From an uncultured Alphaproteobacteria bacterium (GTDB lineage: Bacteria > Pseudomonadota > Alphaproteobacteria > UBA7985): DNA of 34,599 nt. The position numbers were made by a program, and so were the translations under genes. Positions 5,275 to 25,773 of this stretch are shown piece after piece (the stretch's first letter is position 1; each line of letters begins with the position of its first letter). Location: positions 1 through 34,599 of the forward strand of contig CAJQLX010000002.1 in the NCBI GenBank assembly GCA_905479265.1, read 5' to 3'. Below the pieces are notes generated by a model. The model was not told where the DNA came from and made no database searches. It saw only the letters and a program-made list of their open reading frames with translations.

Positions 5275-6270
5275 TTACCACAAGCCCTTTTGCCGGCGCT
5301 CGGCCATGACACATAACCAATCGTGCGCAACCGTTGCTGCGGCGATGGCCGTGATTTCGGCATGATCAAAGGGCGGTGAAACTTCGACCAAATCCATGCC
5401 AATCATGTTGATCGCGCCCAGTCCGCGGATGAGCTCCAACGCCTGCCAGGTGGCGAGCCCTCCGCTGACGGGCGTGCCTGTGCCGGGCGCAAACGCCGGG
5501 TCGAGCACGTCAATGTCAAAACTGAGGTAGACGGGCCGATCCCCCACCCGCTTGCTGATGGCATCGAGCGTGGCGTCGATGCCATGACGGTGGACCCAAG
5601 GCGCGCTCAGCACCTGCATCCCAACATCAATATCATTGTGGGTGCGCAGGCCCACTTGGATGGAATGGTCCACGTCGATCAGGCCTTCGTTGACGGCGGA
5701 AAGAAACATGGTGCCATGGTCCAGTTGCCCTGAACTGGCCCAGGTGTCACAGTGCGCGTCGAACTGCAGCAGGGCGACGGGGCCGTGCTTGGCGGCATGG
5801 GCCTTGATCAAGGGATAGGCGATGAAGTGGTCGCCACCAATGGTGAGCATCGCTGTGTCTGCGGCCAGGATTGAGCGCGCATGGTTCTCGATGGCGTCGG
5901 GGACTGACAGTGGCGAATGGGGGTCGAGGGCGCAATCGCCAAAATCAACGACAGCAAGCGTCTCGAAGGGATCGAAGCCAAAAGGAAAGCCCTTGAGCTC
6001 CGCCAACTGCACCGACGCCGCTCGGACCGCCCGCGGCCCTAAGCGCGTGCCGGGCCGATAGGTGACGGCACTGTCAAAAGGCACCCCGGAGACGGCAATA
6101 TCGACACGCTGTAGATCACGCGAATACTTGCGTCGCAGGAACGAAAGCGCACCGGCGTAGGTCAGCTCATAGGCGGTCCCGTGCACGCTTTCCTTGCGCC
6201 AGGCTTGATCCATGATCTCCTCATTGCCGGTGGGCGTTCCTTGCTGGTCGTGCTGCGGGTTATCGGCCAT
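5275..6270 (-). CDS. speB: Agmatinase (ureohydrolase)
   Basis: A 331-residue ureohydrolase: agmatine plus water gives putrescine plus urea, using a two-manganese centre. Metal-ligand motifs are intact: GGDH at 145-148, DAHCD at 171-175 and SFDIDVLDPAFAPGTGTP at 250-267. The frame stays open upstream through the repeat block, so the longest ORF is misleading. I chose ATG 6270 (MADNPQ) because an AAGGA lies 8-9 nt before it; 6279 and 6213 are alternatives. It heads the minus-strand run continuing into the amidotransferase and feeds putrescine to the puu genes upstream. A related guanidino-ureohydrolase is possible because specificity in this family varies. Confidence 0.85.
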   Translation of the reverse strand: MADNPQHDQQGTPTGNEEIMDQAWRKESVHGTAYELTYAGALSFLRRKYSRDLQRVDIAVSGVPFDSAVTYRPGTRLGPRAVRAASVQLAELKGFPFGFDPFETLAVVDFGDCALDPHSPLSVPDAIENHARSILAADTAMLTIGGDHFIAYPLIKAHAAKHGPVALLQFDAHCDTWASSGQLDHGTMFLSAVNEGLIDVDHSIQVGLRTHNDIDVGMQVLSAPWVHRHGIDATLDAISKRVGDRPVYLSFDIDVLDPAFAPGTGTPVSGGLATWQALELIRGLGAINMIGMDLVEVSPPFDHAEITAIAAATVAHDWLCVMAERRQKGLW

Positions 6271-6336
6271 GCGCGTCATCCTTGATGCCCGTGTAAGATC
6301 CTTGGAGCCTAAAGCGAGGCTGGCCGAGAAGCAATT

Positions 6337-6435
6337 GGTGGCGCGATTACCGCTCAAGGGCTTCGCCCTTTCCCGGCAACCCCGCGCAAGCAGGACGCCG
6401 GCTCTGCCGTCGGTCGGGCTGCGCCCTCCAAGACG
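6337..6435 (-). repeat. Structured repeat element, partial copy (module 1)
   Basis: This is the inverted 3' half of the element at 6623-6842. The 33 bases at 6383-6415 are the exact reverse complement of 6767-6799, and GGTGGCGC at its left edge mirrors GCGCCACC at the other copy's end. On the minus strand it folds into an outer 8-bp stem (6345-6352 with 6374-6381, two wobble pairs) enclosing a smaller hairpin, AAGGGC-TTC-GCCCTT as written on the plus strand. The wobble pairs are G-U only on the minus strand and would be A-C on the plus strand. Confidence 0.75.
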
Positions 6436-6437
6436 TT

Positions 6438-6605
6438 GGTCGGCACCCGCCTCCGGATCGCTGGTCGGCACCCGCCTCCGGATCGCTGGTCGGCACCCGC
6501 CTCCGGATCGCTGGTCGGCACCCGCCTCCGGTATGTTGGTCGGCACCCGCCTCCGGTATGTTGGTCGGCACCCGCCTCCGGTATGTTGGTCGGCACCCGC
6601 CTCCG
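6438..6605 (-). repeat. Tandem array, seven 25-bp units
   Basis: Units begin at 6438, 6463, 6488, 6513, 6538, 6563 and 6588. Each has an 18-bp core GGTCGGCACCCGCCTCCG followed by 7 bases: three units carry one linker ending GCT, three carry one ending GTT, and the last runs into unique DNA. The core read on the minus strand (CGGAGGCGGGTGCCGACC) differs at three positions from CGGAGGCGACAGCCGACC in the nearby structured element. All six frames can stay open through the array, giving spurious Pro/Gly/Arg-rich ORFs. It is too short and regular to be CRISPR. Confidence 0.9.
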
Positions 6606-6622
6606 TCTTCCTCATAAAGGGA

Positions 6623-6842
6623 GAGGTTCAGAGCATCTGAACCTCTGCCCGTCGGCGAGACTGGGGTGTGGACCGTCAAGGCTGCGCAGCACCGGCCAAA
6701 GGCCGGCTTGGCCTTTACGGTCTGAGGGGCTAGCCCCTAACCTGACGTAAACCGGAGGCGACAGCCGACCGACGGCAGAGCCGGCGTCCTGCTTGCGCGT
6801 GGCTGGAGATTGCCCGTCAGGGTAATCGGAAGACGCGCCACC
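6623..6842 (+). repeat. Structured repeat element, copy A (full length)
   Basis: About 220 bases with four stem-loops in order. P1 is GAGGTTCAG/CTGAACCTC (6623-6645, loop AGCAT). P2 is 6671-6682 with 6711-6722, enclosing CCGGCC-AAA-GGCCGG (6692-6706). P3 is AGGGGC-TA-GCCCCT (6725-6738). The conserved 18-mer lies at 6753-6770. A terminal hairpin GATTGCCC-GTCA-GGGTAATC (6808-6827) has one G-U pair, and the copy ends in GCGCCACC. It matches 25549-25773 across its whole length with base changes concentrated in loops and in compensated stem pairs. It lies between the agmatinase and puuB genes. Confidence 0.8.
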
Positions 6843-6990: not shown

Positions 6991-6992
6991 CT

Positions 6993-7126
6993 GGTCGGCA
7001 CCCGCCTCCGGATTATTGGTCGGCATCCGCCTCCGGTATGTTGGTCGGCACCCGCCTCCGGTATGTTGGTCGGCACCCGCCTCCGGGTCGCTGGTCGGCA
7101 TCCGCCTCCGGGCTGCGCCCTCCAAG
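6993..7126 (-). repeat. Tandem array, five 25-bp units, with flanking remnant
   Basis: Units begin at 6993, 7018, 7043, 7068 and 7093 and share the 18-bp core of the first array; two cores carry CATCCG in place of CACCCG. Linkers are more varied than in the first array. The array ends in GGGCTGCGCCCTCCAAG (7110-7126), the same sequence that precedes each array, and stops 7 nt short of the puuB stop codon at 7134. The repeat block therefore abuts the 3' end of the gene. Confidence 0.85.
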
Positions 7127-25478: not shown

Positions 25479-25513
25479 AAAAAGCCCCGCCGGACCACCG
25501 CGCGGGGCTTTTT
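25479..25513 (+). terminator. Rho-independent terminator after the NYN gene
   Basis: AAAAAGCCCCGC pairs perfectly with GCGGGGCTTTTT (12 bp) around an 11-nt loop, ending in a T-run. It starts 36 nt after the stop codon. The symmetric A and T runs could let it work on both strands. Confidence 0.9.
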
Positions 25514-25548
25514 CTTTGGCCACAAGCACTCCGATCTTGATCGACGCT

Positions 25549-25773
25549 GAGGTTCAGCTCGCCTGAACCTCTGCCACGTGGCGAACGGCAGGTGAGGCCC
25601 GTCAAGGCTGCGCAGCACCGGCCTTTGGCCGGCTTGGCCTTGACGGGCCGAGGGGTGCAACCCCTGACATCTCTCAAAAGACGGAGGCGACAGCCGACCG
25701 GCGACGCAGTCGGCGATCAGCTTGAGCGACGCTTGACCACCGCGCGCAGCGCGGGGGTCAAGTCGGCGCCACC
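25549..25773 (+). repeat. Structured repeat element, copy B
   Basis: About 225 bases, homologous throughout to 6623-6842. P1 GAGGTTCAG/CTGAACCTC has loop CTCGC. P2 is a perfect 13-bp stem (25596-25608 with 25637-25649) enclosing CCGGCC-TTT-GGCCGG. P3 is AGGGGT-GCA-ACCCCT (25651-25665). The 18-mer CGGAGGCGACAGCCGACC is at 25682-25699. The terminal hairpin is CTTGACC/GGTCAAG (25732-25738 with 25756-25762) around CCGCGC-GCA-GCGCGG. It ends in GCGCCACC. It has one 18-mer and no tandem array. It lies between the NYN terminator and the 3' end of the acyl-CoA dehydrogenase gene; the rest of this 354-bp spacer holds nothing recognised. Confidence 0.8.

What the first reader, a model, noticed from the sequence alone, without database searches (positions are those of the whole stretch)
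6623..6842. Repeat family with covarying stems: possible new structured RNA
Copies at 6623-6842 and 25549-25773 keep P1, P2 and P3 while loops change (AGCAT/CTCGC, AAA/TTT, TA/GCA). In P2 the pair A6672-T6721 is C25598-G25647 in the other copy, and G6670-T6723 is G-C there. In P3 the closing C-G (AGGGGC/GCCCCT) becomes T-A (AGGGGT/ACCCCT). Compensatory change with loop divergence is the signature of selection on structure. The family is not one I can name.
Basis: seen in the sequence. Interest (0 to 1): 0.8.

Follow-up and report, generated by a model that had tools for sequence, protein, structure and literature searches.

The report
Plasmid-type ssDNA hairpin element on chromosome
The repeat is a folded-DNA element also found on small plasmids, filamentous phages and conjugative plasmids, where it probably marks the place to start copying single-stranded DNA; this marine bacterial genus carries several copies scattered between chromosomal genes, and we found the element neither in Rfam nor in the papers we could search.

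Summary
Both copies fold well (z about -4.5), and 20 copies in six genomes of the genus keep the same hairpins. The conserved unit is only P1-P3 (6623-6738 and 25549-25665). The rest of the stated interval, 6753-6842, is a different repeat that stands alone at an orthologous site. The "new structured RNA" reading is only partly supported. The core, [hairpin]-CTGCCACGTGGCGAACG with the P3 hairpin GGGGCAGCGCCCC, recurs on small rolling-circle plasmids, on filamentous phages, beside mobV/oriT, and in leading-type regions of conjugative plasmids. It lies on the majority-coding strand in 9 of 9 phage-type contigs with the hairpin. No E. coli chromosome has it. Best reading: a single-strand initiation site that primes complementary-strand synthesis, recognised by a host factor (perhaps DnaG at the invariant CTG), here dispersed on a chromosome like a MITE. 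By these tests it is not a REP/BIME, Frpo, R100 G site, phage G4 origin or Rfam family. Priming, any chromosomal function and how it spreads are untested.

The parts
6623..6738 (+). Copy 1 of the element: P1, CTG, GGCGA hairpin, P2, P3
   Evidence: CM hit 43.2 bits for the core; alignment with 19 other genus copies; DNA fold z -4.87
6623..6645 (+). P1 hairpin of copy 1: GAGGTTCAG / CTGAACCTC, loop AGCAT
   Evidence: folds; covariation
6645..6647 (+). Invariant CTG at the 3' base of P1, candidate primer start
   Evidence: invariant in all 20 genus copies and present in the plasmid/phage copies; role inferred by analogy with the annotated G4 origin
6651..6661 (+). Small stem GTC[GGCGA]GAC with invariant GGCGA loop
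   Evidence: Stem types CGT/ACG, ACT/AGT and GTC/GAC across copies; 3 of 3 pairs change on both sides
6670..6723 (+). P2 stem of copy 1, with one broken pair C6677-T6716
6725..6738 (+). P3 hairpin of copy 1
   Evidence: relatives
25549..25665 (+). Copy 2 of the element: P1 25549-25571, CGT[GGCGA]ACG 25577-25587, P2 25596-25649, P3 25651-25665
   Evidence: CM hit 53.2 bits for the core; DNA fold z -6.08; P1-P3 absent from the orthologous site in G003
6753..6842 (+). Separate repeat (C-module), not part of the element: CGGAGGCGACAGCCGACCG...GCGCCACC
25682..25773 (+). Second C-module copy, next to copy 2 but not part of the element

Best explanation
The two copies belong to a family of single-strand-acting DNA elements, most likely single-strand initiation sites (ssi/sso). 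When the strand that carries the element is single-stranded it folds into P1, the GGCGA-loop hairpin, an optional P2 and P3. A conserved host factor, perhaps DnaG primase starting at the invariant CTG at the 3' base of P1, then primes synthesis of the complementary strand. Plasmids and filamentous phages would use it to turn single strands into double strands after rolling-circle replication, infection or conjugation. In this alphaproteobacterial genus the P1-P3 unit has spread to intergenic chromosomal sites (1 to 7 copies per genome) as a small dispersed repeat that appears to be inherited vertically at some loci and keeps its fold. Shown here: homology of the core and of P3, covariation in P1 and the GGCGA stem, strand placement on mobile elements, and presence/absence at an orthologous site. 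Inferred: priming activity, the identity of the host factor, and any function or means of spread on the chromosome.
For: A pattern from the core hit Neisseria, Xanthobacter, Nitrospina and Rhizobium records and another alphaproteobacterial MAG, besides the genus. BLAST found it in 161 plasmid records with a 45-nt query and 207 with a 31-nt core query, both at E <= 10, so the weakest are unsafe, and in inoviruses. In 5,426 E. coli genomes there are 12 places, all on plasmids. Carriers include small rep plasmids pZMO1B, pNL750149 and pTfr2, RepL/MobV plasmids, mobV regions, a MOBQ plasmid, and alphaproteobacterial plasmids near leading-region-type genes such as DUF932, umuDC, WGR and UvrD. The element is on the majority-coding strand in 9 of 9 phage-type contigs that have the hairpin and on the rep strand in four small plasmids. 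At 39 tail sites collected mainly by tail pattern or BLAST, 30 have a hairpin of score >= 9 immediately 5', against 2% of random CTG sites. P3, outside the BLAST queries, recurs on plasmids as GGGGCAGCGCCCC. G4 also has its CTG next to a hairpin at the annotated complementary-strand origin.
Against: No member was shown here to prime DNA synthesis, and none of the papers searched holds this sequence. On inoviruses the packaged strand is also the mRNA-sense strand, so placement alone cannot separate DNA from RNA. RepL of pA29J1 is on the opposite strand from the element, and two MobV plasmids carry copies in both orientations. The G4 origin, the R100 G-site region and the F leading region do not match the core model. 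On the chromosome, orientation relative to GC skew is mixed, which gives no support for a role in lagging-strand priming there.
Confidence: 0.6

Rival explanations
1. It is a structured non-coding RNA: a small RNA or UTR element carried by plasmids and phages and dispersed on this chromosome.
For: Covarying stems; no Rfam match; on many small replicons it lies on the coding strand.
Against: The genus copies share no upstream sequence that could hold a promoter (mean identity 0.30 against 0.26 shuffled). Flanking genes differ and the next gene usually faces the element from the opposite strand. Plasmid contexts share passage through single-stranded DNA rather than any one gene.
Confidence: 0.2
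2. It is a single-strand promoter of the Frpo type: the folded strand recruits RNA polymerase, which makes a primer or early mRNAs.
For: Many plasmid copies have a stem ending in CTTGACG (-35-like) about 20 nt before ACGCT upstream of P1; some lie near leading-region-type genes. Frpo works this way on F (PMC9849209, PMC11541004).
Against: No plausible -10 box was seen in the conserved core; the core model finds nothing in the F or R100 leading regions beyond chance; the TTGAC stretch is absent from P2 in several genus copies.
Confidence: 0.15
3. Whatever the family does on plasmids, the chromosomal copies are a REP/MITE-like repeat with no present function as an initiation site; the resemblance to plasmids reflects origin only.
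For: Several dispersed copies per genome, mostly at gene 3' ends; presence/absence at an orthologous site; identical P1 loops in some non-orthologous copies; mixed orientation against GC skew.
Against: No Y1 transposase (RAYT) in six genomes while the control rings in five; no terminal inverted repeats were noticed; stems are kept by compensatory change rather than decaying.
Confidence: 0.4

Closest known systems
Single-strand origins and ssi sites of rolling-circle and conjugative plasmids (background in PMC4595007; pIGRK ssi in PMC6854812)
   Same: Noncoding, strong hairpins, active strand is the displaced or transferred strand, found on small rolling-circle plasmids and near mob/oriT
   Different: This core sequence appeared in no paper searched here, and its activity is untested
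Complementary-strand origin of phage G4 (primase-dependent)
   Same: CTG at the 3' side of a hairpin; the record annotates RNA primer and origin there
   Different: No match to the core model; GGCGA hairpin and P3 layout differ
Frpo single-strand promoters of F-like plasmids
   Same: Folded single-stranded DNA in leading regions
   Different: No core match in the F or R100 leading regions; no clear -10 box
REP/BIME and other intergenic repeats
   Same: Dispersed, intergenic, palindromic
   Different: No Y1 transposase found in the genus; core shared with plasmids and phages of other classes

Membership tests
Single-strand initiation site (ssi/sso) | Primes complementary-strand synthesis on single-stranded DNA | not testable with these tools
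   needs a vector or in vitro priming assay
Single-strand initiation site (ssi/sso) | Lies on the strand that becomes single-stranded | tested here: inconclusive
   majority-coding strand in 9 of 9 phage-type contigs with the hairpin and rep strand in four small plasmids, but pA29J1 RepL is opposite and L078 and L145 carry both orientations
Single-strand initiation site (ssi/sso) | Conserved hairpin structure in a noncoding region | tested here: met
   the listed best plasmid hits lie outside annotated genes
Rfam RNA families | Match to a covariance model | tested here: not met
   0 gathering hits in the window; at E <= 1 only hits away from the element in eight loci
REP/BIME with RAYT | Y1 transposase in the genome | tested here: not met
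   0 of 6 genomes, control rings in five; some genomes are incomplete
Frpo | Sequence kinship with the F/R100 leading regions | tested here: not met
   best core hits E 1.5 to 7.6
Primase-dependent G site (R100) | Sequence kinship with the R100 region downstream of repA | tested here: not met
   0 matches at 3 mismatches; no core hit in L067
Integrated inovirus remnant | Zot in the genome | tested here: not met
   0 of 6 genomes, control rings

The most novel reading that the evidence does not exclude
A so far unnamed, host-recognised single-strand replication start is shared by proteobacterial rolling-circle plasmids, filamentous phages and conjugative plasmids, and one marine genus has taken it up as a chromosomal repeat kept by selection on its fold.
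Probability: 0.35. Interest if true: 0.78.

Novelty: new variant of a known kind. Interest (0 to 1): 0.62.

Why it matters
If the core is one priming signal used by unrelated plasmids and phages, it gives a sequence handle for finding single-strand origins in Proteobacteria, which are usually mapped one plasmid at a time, and a common host dependency of plasmids that can carry resistance genes. Its spread on chromosomes, where no single-stranded circle is made, makes it directly testable whether such sites can serve the host.

Tried and rejected
Rfam at gathering and permissive thresholds. Literal sequence search in papers: none. Kinship with the R100 G-site region, F and R100 leading regions, the G4 and alpha3 F-G region and the M13 intergenic region: no core match. 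Orientation against GC skew as a test of lagging-strand priming: mixed; the script missed the copies at G000:C19b and G001:C72. Rep_1 search in the genus: control void, so uninformative. An exact 20-nt pattern in 385 alphaproteobacterial genomes: only the genus; this would miss diverged copies. IMG/VR locus L124 has the tail inside a long ORF without a good hairpin and was taken as chance. IS110 bridge RNA considered because some copies lie near IS110-type genes (L050, L060, L138); most contexts show none.

Full report
What is there. The window has two copies of a hairpin-rich element, 6623-6738 and 25549-25665 on the + strand. Each has P1, a CTG at its 3' base, a 3-bp stem around the loop GGCGA, a long stem P2 and a short hairpin P3. 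Folding is well beyond shuffled sequence. The interval to 6842 includes a second, separate repeat (6753-6842). In G003 the orthologous site of copy 2, identified by the flanking genes, has that second repeat but not P1-P3.

In the genus. A covariance model of the core (R1) finds 22 hits at E <= 0.1 in six genomes of the genus, of which 20 were taken as copies: seven in the window's genome, one to four in the others. Non-orthologous copies share nothing upstream of P1, so the unit begins at P1. Copies sit between genes, mostly with the next gene facing them from the opposite strand; the gene calls behind this are simple ORF calls. Three loci, recognised by the same flanking ORFs, hold the element in three genomes each, which suggests vertical inheritance; the site of copy 2 shows presence and absence. 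The spacer around copy 1 differs strongly between the genomes, and only the window's genome has the element there.

Selection on structure. In alignment A2 (20 sequences from the genus, plasmids and phages) 99.6% of cells pair, 10 of 12 pairs change on both sides, and neither shuffles nor slid partners come near. A2 was chosen with a hairpin filter and loops were trimmed, so this overstates somewhat. A check free of the model is that 30 of 39 tail sites, collected mainly by pattern or BLAST, have a strong hairpin immediately 5', against 2% of random CTG sites. P2 stems differ in sequence but persist in most copies.

Elsewhere. The core pattern hits unrelated bacteria and a Neisseria-like phage contig. 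BLAST finds it on plasmids and inoviruses, and in E. coli only on plasmids. Contexts: small rep plasmids, RepL/MobV plasmids, mobV regions, a MOBQ plasmid, inoviruses near zot, and alphaproteobacterial plasmids, several of them near genes typical of leading regions. P3 with the sequence GGGGCAGCGCCCC recurs on them, which supports homology beyond the query. Several alphaproteobacterial plasmid copies share the order P1, GGCGA, P2, P3 with the genus; many other plasmid copies have an extra stem with CTTGACG and an ACGCT box upstream and little or no P2.

How it most likely works. The common factor among carriers is passage through single-stranded DNA, with different Rep, Mob and phage proteins, so a host factor is the simplest reader. 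On phage-type contigs the element is on the majority-coding strand in 9 of 9 cases with the hairpin. The invariant CTG beside a hairpin resembles the layout of the annotated G4 origin, and E. coli DnaG is known to start at CTG (own knowledge, not tested). I therefore favour a primase-type single-strand initiation site. RNA polymerase (Frpo type) and RNA readings remain open. What the chromosomal copies do is unknown; GC-skew orientation gives no support for a replication role.

Negative controls. Y1 transposase and Zot are not found in the genus; F, R100, G4, alpha3 and M13 regions do not match the core model.

Limits. Genomes of the genus are partly incomplete MAGs. The paper library holds only open-licence papers, so a description in a subscription journal could have been missed. 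No function was measured.

Noticed in passing
window 6437-6605 and 6992-7111: Tandem arrays of a 25-bp unit that resembles the reverse complement of the C-module head (CGGAGGCG..GCCGACC).
   Followed up: partly
window 6753-6842, 25682-25773: C-module repeat, 20 pattern hits in this genome and 2 to 8 in five relatives; its head also flanks the tandem arrays.
   Followed up: partly
window 5275-6615: The ORF called as arginase runs through the tandem array at its N terminus; the Pfam domain covers only residues 172-432, so the true start is probably further in.
   Followed up: no
window 25487-25516: Terminator-like hairpin with a T run after the NYN-domain gene, upstream of copy 2.
   Followed up: no
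L078 and L145: Two MobV plasmids carry two copies of the core in opposite orientation.
   Followed up: no
L060, L061, L062, L074, L076-L080, upstream of P1: Stem GTCAAGGG..CCCTTGACG followed about 20 nt later by ACGCT; not seen upstream of P1 in the genus copies.
   Followed up: partly
L072 minus strand: The M13 intergenic region loosely resembles the core (shares CTTGACG and GGCGAACG) but on the other strand; no model match.
   Followed up: partly
L008 against L085, L089, L091: At the uvrA-like locus three relatives carry P1-P3 while the window's genome seems to have only the C-module (seen in sequence, not aligned).
   Followed up: partly
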